Assembly (NCBI GenBank): GCA_007116635.1
Contig: SKIB01000017.1
Span: 1-37,800 of the forward strand
DNA: 37,800 nucleotides
Source of the DNA: Saccharospirillaceae bacterium
GTDB taxonomy: Bacteria > Pseudomonadota > Gammaproteobacteria > Pseudomonadales > Natronospirillaceae
Reading direction: 5' to 3'
Positions 4,085-37,554 of this stretch are shown here, piece by piece (the stretch's first letter is position 1; every line of letters begins with the position of its first letter). The notes under the pieces are model-generated. The model did not search any database. It was not told the DNA's origin and saw only the letters and a program-made list of their open reading frames with translations. The position numbers and the translations under genes were made by a program.

Positions 4085-4234
4085 GACCATTCTCCTCAGC
4101 GAGTTGTTATCATTGGCGGCAACTCTAGCCTGCTTTTGCTTGAGCTGCAATTATCCGTCTCTAAAATTAGACAAATTTAGTATTTCACAATCCCATTGCA
4201 GGCTGATACCTTGGCCGCAATTGAGGAGAAGAAC

Positions 4235-4972
4235 ATGCATAGCACAGCAATTGAACAACAAAACCAAGAATGGCAAAGCAGCCACCCCAAGGCCATTCTT
4301 AAACAGGCGCTCAGCGACCATCAGGCCATTGCCATCTCATTCAGCGGTGCTGAAGATGTGGTGCTGATTGACCTGGCTTTGAAGGTGGTGACAGACAAAA
4401 GCCAACTGCAGGTCTTTAGCCTTGACACTGGCCGTCTGCACCCTGAAACCCTGGCCTTCATAGACCAGGTGCGCCAGCACTATCAGATCGACATTCATGT
4501 GCTCTACCCCCAGCATCAGGCCGTGGAGCAATTGGTGCGCGAAAAGGGTTTATTCAGCTTTTATCAGGACGGGCATAAGGAATGCTGCTCGGTGCGCAAG
4601 ATCGAGCCCTTGAGGCGCAAACTGAGCGAACTGGACGCTTGGATCACCGGCCAACGCAAGGACCAAAGCCCCTCGACCCGCTCGCAGGTGGCCATCATCG
4701 AACAGGACTCAGCCTTTACTGGCCGCAACGGCCCCTTGGTCAAGTACAACCCGCTGGCCAACTGGAGCAGCGCTGATGTATGGCAATACATTCGTATGTT
4801 CGATGTGCCCTTTAACCCGCTGCATCAGCAAGGCTTCATCAGCATCGGTTGCCAACCCTGCACTCGTGCGGTGCTGCCCAACCAGCACGAACGCGAAGGC
4901 CGCTGGTGGTGGGAAGAAGGCACACAAAAAGAATGCGGTCTGCATTCGGGCAATGTTATCGCCCAAGGCTAG
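4235..4972 (+). CDS. cysH: CysH: assimilatory adenylyl-sulfate (APS) reductase, 4Fe-4S type
   Basis: 245 aa. It reduces activated sulfate to sulfite with thioredoxin in cytosolic sulfate assimilation. The PP-loop motif [10 protein letters not shown] is at about 35-44. Two cysteine pairs, Cys117-Cys118 (KECCSVRK) and Cys206/Cys209 (GCQPCTR), are the 4Fe-4S ligands that mark APS reductases; E. coli-type PAPS reductases lack them. The nucleophilic Cys234 is in the C-terminal KECGLH. The ATG at 4235 is preceded by GAGGAG at 4223-4228, which is why I reject the upstream in-frame ATG at 4196. The gene is convergent with cysB, the regulator of this pathway, with a REP-like cluster between them. Confidence 0.95.
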
Positions 4973-4993
4973 GTCCTTAGCAAGCACAGGTAA

Positions 4994-5013
4994 TCCTGCG
5001 TGCAGTCGTAGGA
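4994..5013. repeat. REP-like palindrome, degenerate copy
   Basis: TCCTGCG and CGTAGGA flank a 6-nt centre; one arm has a T where the family has C. It is the first of three copies between cysH and cysB. Confidence 0.6.
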
Positions 5014-5023
5014 TATAGCCCAA

Positions 5024-5049
5024 GTCATCCTGCGCATAGTCGCAGGATC
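5024..5049. repeat. REP-like palindrome
   Basis: ATCCTGCG and CGCAGGAT arms around a 5-6 nt centre, with the family's outer GTC at the left end. It forms one end of the composite repeat 5024-5096. Confidence 0.85.
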
Positions 5050-5096
5050 TCCTTGGGTTGTTCGGGACTAACGTTTCCCGCCCAGACACTGGCTGG
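5024..5096 (-). repeat. Composite REP-containing repeat, copy 1 (pairs with 36393-36466)
   Basis: On the minus strand this 73-nt stretch aligns with 36393-36466 on the plus strand with about seven substitutions and one single-base gap (about 89% identity). It has two modules: a CCAG...CTGG palindrome followed by GGCGGGAA, and, after the shared AGTCCCGAACAACCC, the REP-like palindrome at 5024-5049 (GTCATCCTGCG arm, CGCAGGATC arm). It lies between convergent cysH and cysB. Confidence 0.85.
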
Positions 5097-5109
5097 TTTT
5101 GTGGTTGGC

Positions 5110-5162: not shown

Positions 5163-6155
<993 letters not shown>

Positions 6156-10649: not shown

Positions 10650-10705
10650 CCCGCACGAATGCAACGGGCTGGCGTGAGGTTTCGCTTGCAGTCAATGGTG
10701 CATTA

Positions 10706-10731
10706 GATCCTGCGACTACGCGCAGGATGAC
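10706..10731. repeat. REP-like palindrome
   Basis: GATCCTGCG and CGCAGGATGAC arms around ACTACG, in the 124-nt gap between convergent lexA and rlmL. A half copy (TGCGCAGGATGAC) follows at 10741-10753. Confidence 0.85.
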
Positions 10732-10773
10732 TAAGTAAGGTGCGCAGGATGACAGAGCAAGAGATATTAGCCC

Positions 10774-34477: not shown

Positions 34478-36100
34478 ATGGACGAACAAAGCATGAGTTT
34501 TGATCTCTTGGTGGTGGGTGCAGGCCCAGCGGGCTTGGCCACTGCCATTCGCATGGCTCAGCTGGCGCAACAAGCACAGCAAGAGGTTAGCATCGCGGTG
34601 TTGGAAAAGTCCGCCGCCATAGGCGGGCACATTCTTTCTGGCGCGGTGATGGACCCCAAGGCCTTACATGAGTTGTTTCCCGACCTAGAGCAACGCCAGC
34701 CCGATTGGGGCCTTGAAGTGAGCAGCGACGACTTGTTATGGCTCAGGCCGCAGGGTTCCATCAGCATCCCTAGCCTGCTGCGCCCCGCCAGCCTGGATAG
34801 CCATGGCTGTCGCGTGCTTAGCCTTGGTAATCTTTGCCGCTGGTTAGCGGCACAGGCCGAAGCCATGGGCATCAATGTGTTTCCCGGCTTCAGTGCCAGC
34901 GAGCTGATTTACCAACAAGAACGGGTCATCGGAGTGCGCACCGGCGCTCTAGGCCTTGACCGCGAAGGACAAGCCAAGAGCAACTATCAAGAACCCATGG
35001 TCATTTATGCCAAATCCGTGGTATTGGCCGAGGGCGCGCGCGGCCACCTAGGCAAAGAAGTCATTACCCGCTTTGGCCTGGATCAGGGCAAAGATCCGCA
35101 GCACTATGCCCTAGGCTTTAAAGAGCTATGGGACATCCCAAGCGAACTTCATCAGCCCGGCAAGGTGGTGCACACCCTTGGCTGGCCATTAAGCGAGCAG
35201 CAGAGCACGGGTGGTGGCTTTATTTATCATCAGCAGGATCAACAGTTGGCGATCGGCTTGATCGTGGATCTCAACTATCAGCATCCGGACTTCAATCCCT
35301 TTTTGGAGTTCCAGCGCTTTAAGTCCCATCCCGAGGTGGCCAAATTAATCGCCAAAGGCAAGCTGGTGAGCTATGGTGCACGGGCCATTGCCAAGGGCGG
35401 CTGGCAATCTCTGGTCAAAATGGATTTTCCCGGTGGTCTGCTGGTGGGCTGCGATGCTGGTACCCTTAACCCAGCACGCATCAAAGGCAGCCACAGCGCC
35501 ATCAAAAGTGGCAGCCTAGCCGCCGAGGCTATTTGGCAACAATGGCAAAGCCAGGCCTCCAGCACTGACCTTGAGCTTAGGGTGCAACAAAGCTGGCTGG
35601 GAGATGAACTGTACCGTGCGCGCAATGTGGCTCCGGCCATGCATCGCCTGCCCTTTGTGCTGGCTGGTGCCCTTATTACCTTGGAGCAAAAGATTTTAGC
35701 CGGCAAGGCGCCCTGGACCCTGTCGGATCCAATTCCTGACCACCTCAGAATGAAGAAACGTGACCAGCTACCCAAGCTGGGTAGCCCAGTGTTTGCCACC
35801 GACCGTTTGCAGTCCATCTATCATGCCAACCTGCAGCACGACGAAAACCAGCCCCAGCATTTACTGGTCGCTGACCCCAGCCTTGCCGTTGGTCGTCATT
35901 GGCAGGATTATGGTGAGCCCGCCACCCGCTACTGCCCTGCTGGGGTCTATGAAGTGGTGGAGCATCAGGGCGAACTGAGGTTTCAGGTAAATGGCCAAAA
36001 CTGTCTGCATTGTAAAACCTGCGACATCAAGGACCCAAGCGGCAACATCAACTGGCGCCCACCTGAGGGCGGCAGTGGGCCAAACTATCCCAATATGTGA
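34478..36100 (+). CDS. Electron transfer flavoprotein-ubiquinone oxidoreductase (ETF-QO)
   Basis: 540 aa. A membrane-surface flavo/Fe-S protein that moves electrons from reduced ETF to the quinone pool. The N-terminal FAD motif is LLVVGAGPAGLATAIRMAQL (about 10-29); VLEKSAAIGGHILSGAVMDP follows. The substrate-binding middle contains SPGKV-like and GGWQSLVKMDFPGGLLVGCDAGTLNPARIKGSHSA text (about 308-345), typical of ETF-QO. The C-terminal 4Fe-4S ligands are Cys486 and the cluster Cys509, Cys512 and Cys515 in NCLHCKTCDIKDP. It is divergent from etfBA across 168 nt, so all three parts of the ETF system are together. The symbol varies between organisms, so none is given. Confidence 0.96.
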   Translation: MDEQSMSFDLLVVGAGPAGLATAIRMAQLAQQAQQEVSIAVLEKSAAIGGHILSGAVMDPKALHELFPDLEQRQPDWGLEVSSDDLLWLRPQGSISIPSLLRPASLDSHGCRVLSLGNLCRWLAAQAEAMGINVFPGFSASELIYQQERVIGVRTGALGLDREGQAKSNYQEPMVIYAKSVVLAEGARGHLGKEVITRFGLDQGKDPQHYALGFKELWDIPSELHQPGKVVHTLGWPLSEQQSTGGGFIYHQQDQQLAIGLIVDLNYQHPDFNPFLEFQRFKSHPEVAKLIAKGKLVSYGARAIAKGGWQSLVKMDFPGGLLVGCDAGTLNPARIKGSHSAIKSGSLAAEAIWQQWQSQASSTDLELRVQQSWLGDELYRARNVAPAMHRLPFVLAGALITLEQKILAGKAPWTLSDPIPDHLRMKKRDQLPKLGSPVFATDRLQSIYHANLQHDENQPQHLLVADPSLAVGRHWQDYGEPATRYCPAGVYEVVEHQGELRFQVNGQNCLHCKTCDIKDPSGNINWRPPEGGSGPNYPNM

Positions 36101-36116
36101 TGAGCTGCTTCTTATA

Positions 36117-36142
36117 GTCACCCTGCACACAGTCGCAGGATC
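36117..36142. repeat. REP-like palindrome, diverged
   Basis: GTCACCCTGC and GTCGCAGGATC arms around a variable centre, 17 nt after the ETF-QO stop. Confidence 0.7.
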
Positions 36143-36233
36143 TACTCACTTAATTCACAGGCTGCGCCAGCCCTGCTGCGGCTGCTGCCTTGTGGCCTCT
36201 GGCGAGCATTCGCTGCGCGCTGCTTCATTTATG

Positions 36234-36259
36234 GACCCTGCGACTTCGCGCAGGGTGAC
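36234..36259. repeat. REP-like palindrome
   Basis: GACCCTGCG and CGCAGGGTGAC arms around ACTTCG. Both arms carry the compensating change T to C and A to G relative to the other copies, so the stem is preserved. Confidence 0.85.
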
Positions 36260-36343
36260 AAGGGGCATAGTAACAAATCACTAAACCAGCCCAAGGAGCG
36301 GTCTGGGAGCTGGGATCGAGGGGTGTCGGCGGCCATGGATGGA

Positions 36344-36367
36344 CGCCGTCAAGCGGCTAGGACGGCG
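36344..36367. repeat. Hairpin-forming inverted repeat
   Basis: CGCCGTC (36344-36350) and GACGGCG (36361-36367) form a 7-bp GC-rich stem with a 10-nt loop, flanked by GGA and a later TCC. Confidence 0.6.
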
Positions 36368-36392
36368 AATAGCGTCCCCGAGAGCGCAGTTG

Positions 36393-36466
36393 CCAGGCCA
36401 GTGACTGGGCGGGGAACGGTAGTCCCGAACAACCCATAGAGATCCTGCGACTTCGCGCAGGATGAC
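36393..36466 (+). repeat. Composite REP-containing repeat, copy 2 (pairs with 5024-5096)
   Basis: About 89% identical, in inverted orientation, to 5024-5096. The left module has the palindrome CCAGTGACTGG, then GGCGGGGAACG, the shared AGTCCCGAACAACCC and the REP-like palindrome. Like copy 1 it lies between convergent genes. Confidence 0.85.
36441..36466. repeat. REP-like palindrome
   Basis: GATCCTGCG and CGCAGGATGAC arms around ACTTCG; the cleanest copy in the window and the right module of the composite repeat. Confidence 0.88.
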
Positions 36467-36487
36467 TGGGCTTTGGCGCAAGATGAA

Positions 36488-36528: not shown

Positions 36529-37554
36529 TCATTGCTGACCCATGATTCTTGGTTCAATCTGCAAATGGACACCAAAGAGATCCAGCACCCGCTCCTGAAC
36601 CTCCAGGGCAAAGTTAAGCACAGCCCGCAGCGGCTGTCGGCTAGGGTTTATCAACACCAAAGCGTGCTTATCATAGATGGCCACACCCGTACTGGCCGCC
36701 TTGCCCTTGTAGCCAGCAGCCTCAATCAACCAGCCAGCACTGAGCTTGACCGTACTGGACTGAGCAGGACTGCTGGCCGGGAATTGCGGCATGTTGGGAT
36801 AGGCCTGACGCAAGGATTCGGCCTTGCTTAGGCTCACGCTTGGGTTATGAAAAAAACTGCCGGCATTTGGAATCTGCCTGGGATTGGGTAATTTTTCCCC
36901 GCGGATAGAAGTAATAAGCGCAGCAACCTCTTGCGGGCTTAGCTTTTGGTCTTTGTAGCCTTGCAGCGGGCCATAGTCCAAACGAGCCTGCCCCTGCTTA
37001 GCAAGGCGCAACACCAAGGACTCAATGATCCACTGGTCCTGATGTTCAGCCTGCTTGAAGACACTTTGGCGATAGCTGAACTGACAGTCCGACATGCTGA
37101 ATTCACGCACCTGACCGCTCAGCCTATGCCTAGCACTTAAGCCATGCATCAACTGCGACAGTTCCACCCCATAGGCACCAATGTTCTGTACCGGCGCGGC
37201 TCCGACAGTGCCGGGAATGGCGGCGAGATTCTCCAGCCCCCACCAGCCCTGATCGCAGCAGTGCTCCACAAGGCTCGGCCAATCAGTGCCGGCCGACACC
37301 TGAATCCAAAGGTGCTCGGCATCCTCGCGAATGACATCAAGTCGCTGCTCCGTTAGGCGCAGCACTAAGCCCTGAATCTTGGGTGCCAGCAAAAGATTAC
37401 TGCCGCCGCCCAAAAGGTGCACAGGCAACTGCTCTGCTCTGGCCTGAGTCAGAAGTTCAAGCAGCTGTTGCTGATTCGCAGCTTCAGCATAAAATTCGGC
37501 CTTGGCAGGAATGGCAAGGGTATTTAGGGCATCAAGAGAAACATTGGCTTGCAT
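36529..37554 (-). CDS. murB: UDP-N-acetylenolpyruvoylglucosamine reductase (type I MurB)
   Basis: 341 aa, as in the E. coli-type (type I) enzyme. It reduces UDP-GlcNAc-enolpyruvate to UDP-MurNAc with NADPH and FAD, the second committed step of peptidoglycan precursor synthesis. FAD-binding motifs are HLLGGGSNLLLAP (about 46-58) and GLENLAAIPGTVGAAPVQNIGAYG (about 106-129). Catalytic residues are Arg162 (SYRQSVFK), Ser233 (NAGSFFHNP) and Glu334 (IEPRI). The DYGPLQ and YPNMPQFP segments belong to the type I loop. Its ATG directly follows the TAA of the upstream phosphatase gene (no gap), so both are in one operon. Confidence 0.97.
   Translation of the reverse strand: MQANVSLDALNTLAIPAKAEFYAEAANQQQLLELLTQARAEQLPVHLLGGGSNLLLAPKIQGLVLRLTEQRLDVIREDAEHLWIQVSAGTDWPSLVEHCCDQGWWGLENLAAIPGTVGAAPVQNIGAYGVELSQLMHGLSARHRLSGQVREFSMSDCQFSYRQSVFKQAEHQDQWIIESLVLRLAKQGQARLDYGPLQGYKDQKLSPQEVAALITSIRGEKLPNPRQIPNAGSFFHNPSVSLSKAESLRQAYPNMPQFPASSPAQSSTVKLSAGWLIEAAGYKGKAASTGVAIYDKHALVLINPSRQPLRAVLNFALEVQERVLDLFGVHLQIEPRIMGQQ

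What the first reader, a model, noticed from the sequence alone, without database searches (positions are those of the whole stretch)
5024..5096. Longer composite element shared by two distant loci in inverted orientation
5024-5096 (minus) and 36393-36466 (plus) match at about 89% over roughly 74 nt: a CCAG/CTGG palindrome, a fixed spacer with AGTCCCGAACAACCC, and the REP-like palindrome. Two different palindromes with a fixed spacer look like a BIME-type or small non-autonomous mobile unit. The inverted pair 31 kb apart could also recombine.
Basis: seen in the sequence. Interest (0 to 1): 0.55.

Follow-up and report, generated by a model that had tools for sequence, protein, structure and literature searches.

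The report
Dispersed hairpin repeat with CsrA-type loops
The two matching sequences are the tail of a larger hairpin repeat scattered through this bacterial genome, and its loops look like landing sites for the global RNA-binding regulator CsrA, so the repeats may soak up or redirect that regulator, though this has not been tested.

Summary
The match is real: 66 of 74 nt identical, inverted, in two convergent intergenic regions. It is not a stand-alone unit but the 3' arm of a ~185-nt repeat: 40 core matches in the 2.5-Mb genome, 21 matches of at least 60 nt to the tail. The copy at 36283-36466 is intact; that at 5024-5106 lost ~110 internal nt.

Across relatives the main stem changes by compensatory substitution while the GGA loops hold. 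A few relatives match Rfam TwoAYGGAY, already predicted in print to bind CsrA; this genome's copies do not. The cap occurs in 44 of 274 sampled genomes of the class and 16 of 22 of the family, up to 147 matches in one. In a distant genome it is cargo of a 234-bp MITE with 9-bp target duplications.

Here it usually ends in a REP palindrome; no mobiliser or target duplication was found. CsrA binding is inferred, and the caps tested in other genomes show no sense-strand bias, which counts against a simple transcript-level role.

The parts
36283..36466 (+). Intact copy of the dispersed element (long stem + cap + 3' tail + REP), between convergent ETF-ubiquinone oxidoreductase gene (34478-36100, +) and murB-like gene (36529-37554, -)
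   Evidence: Core match 36283-36422, R1 match 36311-36391, 80.6 bits, REP at 36442-36466; neighbouring genes by Pfam
36286..36322 (+). Left arm of the long stem P1
   Evidence: Alignment of copies, folds of sister copies
36325..36348 (+). Hairpin 1 of the cap; loop CATGGATG (36334-36341) fits the Csr/Rsm pattern CANGGANG
   Evidence: Read from sequence; loop CANGGATG in 37 of 39 aligned copies of this genome; ANGGAX consensus from passages of PMC4005645
36355..36367 (+). Hairpin 2 of the cap; loop TAGGAC lacks the N of ANGGAN, as do 29 of 39 aligned copies of this genome
36374..36412 (+). Right arm of P1; includes the 'CCAG/CTGG palindrome' of the finding
36410..36427 (+). Small hairpin CGGGGAACGGTAGTCCCG
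   Evidence: Read from sequence
36428..36436 (+). Hypervariable 9-nt spacer (AACAACCCA here)
36441..36466 (+). REP-like palindrome that ends the element
5024..5106 (-). Internally deleted copy (left arm and cap missing; junction at a CCAG direct repeat about 5089-5096), between convergent PAPS-reductase gene (cysH-like, 4196-4972, +) and LysR-type regulator gene (5163-6137, -)
   Evidence: genes by Pfam
5024..5049 (-). REP-like palindrome ending the deleted copy
4993..5014 (+). Second, more diverged REP-like palindrome beside the deleted copy
36116..36260 (+). Neighbouring REP-bounded unit (inverted REP 36116-36146, inner unit also seen in L020/L021, REP 36233-36260)
10705..10732 (+). REP-like palindrome without the element

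Best explanation
The 74-nt unit is the 3' arm and tail of a ~185-nt dispersed repeat. Intact copies fold into a long stem capped by a three-way junction with two small hairpins whose loops match what the CsrA/RsmA/RsmE homodimer recognises. Shown by sequence: the repeat, its copy number, the covarying structure, the conserved loops, the relation of some more distant caps to TwoAYGGAY, and carriage of such a cap inside a MITE in another genome. Inferred: when a copy is transcribed, its paired GGA hairpins bind a CsrA dimer, so the many copies act together as low-grade CsrA decoys and individual copies tag the transcripts they sit in, while the terminal REP hairpin protects or ends the RNA. Also inferred: in this lineage the cap was captured by a REP-ended repeat and amplified by an unidentified mobiliser; the 5024 copy is a decayed copy that lost its cap and should not bind.
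For: Loops: in 30 aligned copies of this genome the N of CANGGATG is the freely varying base of loop 1 (G21 A5 T4), while A, G, G, A, T, G are 30 of 30 and C 29 of 30. Across relatives GGA is present in 73 of 73 retained model hits in both hairpins; A stands two before it in 71 (hairpin 1) and 73 (hairpin 2); N and the last loop base vary; the 47 hits without the scan pattern have 33 different pairs of flanking 8-mers at hairpin 1. In 54 caps from 40 further loci of two family genomes hairpin 2 has ANGGA in 54, hairpin 1 in 47, and 6 of the other 7 lack just the N (the 7 read from the rows). Passages of PMC4005645 give ANGGAX on a stem as the high-affinity site and N as a base that can be missing at a cost in affinity. 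Structure: covariation score 0.437 against 0.121 in shuffles, 0 of 500 as high, and 0.059-0.107 when slid; in this genome columns 72/80 change together in 30 of 30 copies. Family: one relative's cap scores 45.2 bits for RF01731 against a cut-off of 43; RF01731 matches in 12 of 18 cap-bearing genomes, over the cut-off in 5, 0 of 14 controls; passages of PMC4333381 predict that TwoAYGGAY binds CsrA. One csrA gene, 65 aa, here. Cargo: 234-bp MITE with 17-18-nt terminal repeats; of six cap-bearing complete copies 3 have exact 9-bp target duplications, 2 have 8 of 9, 1 (233 bp) none. Amplification.
Against: No sense-strand bias: single caps in relatives have the upstream gene on the same strand 14, opposite 16, unknown 3; 8:7 and 8:4 in two family genomes. 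Here the upstream gene is 13:13 with 2 unknown, and in 22 of 26 copies the next gene converges on the element, so many copies would be read as reverse complement. Loop 2 of 29 of 39 copies here lacks the N, which lowers affinity in RsmE. The copies here match no Rfam family, and of the relatives' loci scanned with Rfam RF01731 appeared in 2 of 20 and 0 of 14. Model hits were chosen partly by these loops, and hairpin 1 was fixed by the pattern in the 34 named stretches. No expression or binding data.
Confidence: 0.5

Rival explanations
1. A DNA-level mobile palindrome: the cap and long stem are structural parts of MITE-like elements, folded as single-stranded or cruciform DNA for mobilisation or maintenance; the loops have no CsrA role.
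For: Orientation independence; MITE termini and target duplications in G259; near-identical copies in G259 and G303 and equal-scoring groups in other genomes; divergent pairs, often ~190 bp apart, in Halieaceae and Microbulbifer, like inverted REP doublets.
Against: The three carriers compared (G259, G303, this genome) have different ends and stems around the same cap, so one transposase reading the ends does not explain it. It gives no reason why A(N)GGAN is kept while stems and N vary, or why losses fall on N. No RAYT and no target duplication found here.
Confidence: 0.22
2. An ordinary extragenic hairpin for transcript ends: a long stem plus REP that terminates, stabilises or is cut by RNase III, read in either direction; the cap loops are incidental.
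For: 0 of the 28 copies tested here lie inside an ORF; in 22 of 26 the downstream gene converges, 14 of those 22 with its end within 60 nt of the element's 3' end. Long near-perfect stems in most relatives folded.
Against: A terminator or RNase III stem would not need two conserved GGA loops on freely changing stems.
Confidence: 0.18
3. Plain REP/BIME family spread by a RAYT.
For: 107 REP-like palindromes; most copies end in one, often with another upstream.
Against: No RAYT: the single Y1_Tnp hit is a 90-aa truncated IS200/IS605-type gene beside a TnpB fragment. The REP is not the best-kept part: 15.4% non-consensus cells against 4.1% in the cap (the REP figure is inflated by copies that lost their tail).
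Confidence: 0.08

Closest known systems
TwoAYGGAY RNA (Rfam RF01731)
   Same: Outer stem carrying two hairpins with AYGGAY-type loops; some relatives of the window's cap pass or approach the Rfam cut-off; predicted CsrA binder in passages of PMC4333381.
   Different: Copies in this genome score nothing for the model, have mostly lost N in loop 2, are near-identical amplified repeats with an extra hairpin and usually a REP tail.
Csr/Rsm decoy RNAs (CsrB, CsrC, RsmX/Y/Z)
   Same: Several ANGGAN-type hairpin loops, in pairs that suit a homodimer (passages).
   Different: Those are sRNA genes with many sites each (recalled); here two sites per copy are dispersed over about 40 intergenic places with no promoter shown.
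Bacterial MITEs (Correia, ERIC, MITEAba12 and others; PMC10969869)
   Same: Short, non-coding, palindromic, dispersed; in G259 a MITE bears the cap. Regulatory cargo is known, such as IHF sites in Correia elements (passages).
   Different: No target duplication found for the copies in this genome and terminal repeats not established; CsrA and RsmA are not mentioned in that review.
REP/BIME with RAYT
   Same: REP-like palindromes, extragenic, composite arrangement.
   Different: No RAYT gene found; the cap, not the REP, is the best-kept part.

Membership tests
TwoAYGGAY (RF01731) | Covariance-model score at or above the gathering score of 43 | tested here: not met
   0 matches in the window's genome and none for 36270-36480. 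Met by some relatives: L128 45.2 bits; over the cut-off in 5 of 18 genomes.
TwoAYGGAY (RF01731) | Two terminal loops AYGGAY on a shared outer stem | tested here: inconclusive
   Architecture met; loop 1 AUGGAU in the window copy; loop 2 UAGGAC lacks one base. Relatives: GGA in both loops in 73 of 73 retained hits.
Csr/Rsm binding site | ANGGAX hexaloop directly on a stem (PMC4005645) | tested here: met
   Hairpin 1: CANGGATG in 37 of 39 aligned copies of this genome.
Csr/Rsm binding site | A second such site near enough for one dimer | tested here: inconclusive
   Second GGA about 24 nt away; N present in 6 of 39, absent in 29, not parsed in 4.
Csr/Rsm binding site | Actual binding of CsrA | not testable with these tools
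   Sequence analysis only.
MITE | Multiple dispersed non-coding copies | tested here: met
   40 core matches; 0 of the 28 copies tested inside ORFs.
MITE | Terminal inverted repeats with target-site duplication | tested here: not met
   18 of 26 copies with both ends set: no offset gave more direct repeats of 4-9 nt than shuffled partners. Ends are uncertain, so a duplication further out is not excluded. Met for G259 elements.
REP/BIME | Multi-copy extragenic palindrome | tested here: met
   107 places, control 0.
REP/BIME | Associated RAYT transposase | tested here: not met
   Single Y1_Tnp hit fits IS200/IS605 (89.2 bits, cut-off 55), not REP-associated tyrosine transposase (23.1, cut-off 80); assembly 97% complete.

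The most novel reading that the evidence does not exclude
A class of dispersed, partly transposon-borne elements across Gammaproteobacteria carries dual CsrA sites as cargo: with tens to over a hundred copies per genome they set the free CsrA pool, and their movement rewires the Csr/Rsm network. The same cap has been taken up by unrelated carriers (a MITE in G259, another palindromic element in G303, a REP-ended repeat here).
Probability: 0.3. Interest if true: 0.85.

Novelty: new variant of a known kind. Interest (0 to 1): 0.6.

Why it matters
PMC4333381 treats TwoAYGGAY as an RNA of unknown function, with CsrA binding only predicted (passages). Finding that its architecture is an abundant dispersed element in many Gammaproteobacteria, and cargo of at least one MITE, makes a direct test possible: whether mobile repeats serve as CsrA decoys. 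It would also bear on Csr/Rsm target prediction, where such intergenic sites would be a large hidden pool.

Tried and rejected
Searched Rfam with the window and own copies (nothing relevant) and with relatives (0 of 14 loci; TwoAYGGAY in 2 of 20 loci, plus many below-threshold chance hits such as Ysr224 and eukaryotic miRNA models, which I took for generic long-hairpin matches). An exact cap pattern in viral contigs and the own core in plasmids and phages gave no match. RAYT idea rejected. REP as terminal repeat: an inverted REP upstream and a REP downstream were both present in 10 of 28 copies, with no consistent distance or duplication. Target duplication: 18 of 26 copies testable, nothing above shuffled partners. 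Hypervariable spacer as a target duplication: a 7-mer of it recurs in the left flank in 2 of 26 copies, both from element sequence. Sense-transcript bias tested and not found; the naive-ORF count (22 '-' and 4 '+' downstream, 4 unknown, of 30) was redone with codon-trained gene calls (22 and 4, 2 unknown, of 28) and agreed; an intermediate run for the named stretches used high-GC loci and is not relied on. Autonomous partner of the G259 MITE: three single-terminus loci looked at by ORF listing alone, one of them cut by a contig end, no evident transposase. Paper search by oligonucleotide words was useless.

Rows dropped: from the 35 places, four were left out of alignment A2 (L102, L111 cut by contig ends; L110, L113 with arms from two different copies); 8 weak and 11 duplicate rows of 92; 9 of 39 rows (diverged subtype, truncated or contig-edge); 3 of the 8 G259 loci without two matched ends. 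Two pairs of contig-edge hits (C53/C47 and C90/C107) look like single copies counted twice (read).

Full report
Observation. The two sites match over 74 nt in inverted orientation, 66 of 74 identical, longest exact run 17 nt. Both lie between convergent genes: a PAPS reductase (cysH-like) and a LysR-type regulator for 5024-5106, an ETF-ubiquinone oxidoreductase and a MurB-like protein for 36283-36466 (genes by Pfam). The window is one contig of a 2.51-Mb, 146-contig, 97% complete genome; I did not identify the organism.

Anatomy. Searching the own genome with the unit gave 54 matches, 21 of them covering at least 60 nt. Lining up the flanks showed a longer shared sequence upstream, and a 141-nt core from one copy matched 40 places. 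The full element runs: left arm, cap, right arm, a small hairpin ending AGTCCCG, a 9-nt hypervariable spacer, then AAGAGATCC and, in most copies, the REP palindrome. The copy at 5024-5106 lacks left arm and cap, with a junction at a CCAG direct repeat; a second cap-less copy (L022) has a different junction, at ACTGGG.

Cap. In 30 aligned copies the cap is the best-kept part: 4.1% non-consensus cells against 4.8-9.7% in the arms and flanking hairpins and 15.4% in the REP, the last inflated by lost tails. Singletons are 11 of 1530 cells in the cap against 39 of 2697 in arms and flanking hairpins, Fisher p = 0.04; the regions were chosen after seeing the alignment, so this is weak. In hairpin 1 the sequence CANGGATG varies at N (G21, A5, T4) and otherwise at one C (29 of 30). 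Two columns of hairpin 2 change together in 30 of 30 copies (C-G 19, T-A 11), and a pair in the main stem mostly does (C-G 19, T-A 6, T-G 3, C-A 1, one gap).

Relatives. One scan of named genomes with GTCGGCGGCCANGGATGGNCGCCG found 34 stretches in Thioalkalivibrio, Haliea and other Halieaceae, Microbulbifer, Marinobacter, a Moraxellaceae MAG and others. They share the cap but sit on long stems, mostly near-perfect and mostly different in sequence from copy to copy. A 44-row alignment (31 of the 35 scan places, 2 family relatives, 11 own copies) gave a three-helix consensus with 11 of 21 pairs showing double changes and a covariation score of 0.437 against 0.121 shuffled, 0 of 500 shuffles reaching it. 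A covariance model found caps in 44 of 274 genomes of the class, own genome included (at most 16 candidates scored per genome), in 13 of 13 genomes chosen because they held a cap, and in 16 of 22 of the family, own included, with up to 147 in one genome of 150 candidates scored. Most class genomes (230 of 274) had none at E 0.001, so the model is not matching any hairpin. In 73 retained hits GGA is present in both loops of all; N and the last loop base vary. These hits were selected by a model that contains the loops, so the invariance is partly built in; the freedom of N and of the stems is not.

What the loops resemble. Passages of PMC4005645 define the high-affinity Csr/Rsm site as an ANGGAX hexaloop directly on a stem and say that omitting N lowers affinity. 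The repeats follow this pattern, including the absence of just N in loop 2 of 29 of 39 copies here and in loop 1 of 6 of 54 caps in two family genomes. The own genome has one csrA. Rfam TwoAYGGAY (RF01731) has the same plan; it matches one relative's cap above its cut-off and is found in 12 of 18 cap genomes, over the cut-off in 5, in none of 14 controls; several of these places coincide with R1 matches, for example G336:C16:60840-60961 and 60859-60945. Against this, RF01731 was found in 2 of 20 and 0 of 14 relatives' loci scanned. Passages of PMC4333381 propose CsrA binding for TwoAYGGAY; the table of PMC2864571 lists it as probably RNA, probably not cis-regulatory, from human gut, Gammaproteobacteria and Clostridiales (passage). 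The own copies do not match RF01731, so I call them TwoAYGGAY-like, not members.

Mobility. In G259 the cap is the centre of a 234-bp element with ends CACTGCTGTCCCGTTAA; that end word occurs 62 times at up to 2 mismatches against 0 for its control. Of seven distinct complete elements in the loci held, six carry the cap; among these three have exact 9-bp target duplications, two have 8 of 9, one none. The seventh (L198) has an exact 9-bp duplication, but its cap was not verified. In G303 another palindromic element with different ends carries it. In Halieaceae and Microbulbifer caps often come as divergent pairs, many about 190 bp apart, some 218-420. In the own genome no target duplication was seen in 18 testable copies, and the only Y1-transposase hit is a truncated IS200/IS605-type gene.

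Orientation. Outside this genome, single caps show no preference for the sense strand of the upstream gene: 14 sense, 16 antisense, 3 unknown; 8:7 and 8:4 in two family genomes. Here 22 of 26 copies have their 3' end facing a convergent neighbour (binomial p = 0.0005), with upstream genes 13:13. Gene calls were my own codon-trained ORF picks, not annotation. This is the main result against a transcript-level role: either both strands are transcribed often enough, or the function is at the DNA level, or many copies are idle.

Print. TwoAYGGAY appears in 7 records of the paper library and RF01731 in 4. Searches combining CsrA with repeat, MITE or REP terms showed no title or abstract describing this link in what they listed (5 of 5; 12 of 1,103; 2 of 2; 8 of 1,308). 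The MITE review PMC10969869 has no occurrence of CsrA or RsmA. Subscription papers were not searchable, so this is not proof of absence. What defines BIMEs, RAYTs and the Csr decoy sRNAs is largely recalled.

Noticed in passing
window 36428-36436; tails of L036-L065: A 9-nt hypervariable spacer sits between a conserved hairpin and the conserved AAGAGATCC-REP; origin unexplained.
   Followed up: partly
L020; parts in L036, L037, L044, L058: A second repeat in this genome, upstream of and divergent from the element in some copies, also has two CANGGATG hairpins (GCACAGGGATGTGC and GCCCATGGATGGCGC), seen together in L020.
   Followed up: no
L151/L165, L115, L148, L155, L163: Caps in Halieaceae, Microbulbifer and a Moraxellaceae MAG come as divergent pairs, often ~190 bp apart; in Haliea a pair sits at the same place in two species.
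   Followed up: partly
L110, L113: Two MAG loci have left and right stem arms that belong to different copies: recombination through the cap or assembly chimeras.
   Followed up: no
L182-L193 (G303): A second cap-bearing palindromic element with ends CTTAGGAACGAGCATGAAATAACTT and near-complement; ends and duplications not worked out, and a further flank type in some copies.
   Followed up: partly
L215-L229 (G016, same family): 147 model matches in one genome; the 15 copies looked at have largely different stems but share short motifs at the stem base (about CTAGC ... GCGGGTT).
   Followed up: no
L123:467-1227: Decayed IS200/IS605-type element: truncated TnpA and a TnpB C-terminal fragment on opposite strands.
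   Followed up: yes
window 36116-36260: A separate REP-bounded unit beside the intact element, with its inner part also present in L020/L021.
   Followed up: no
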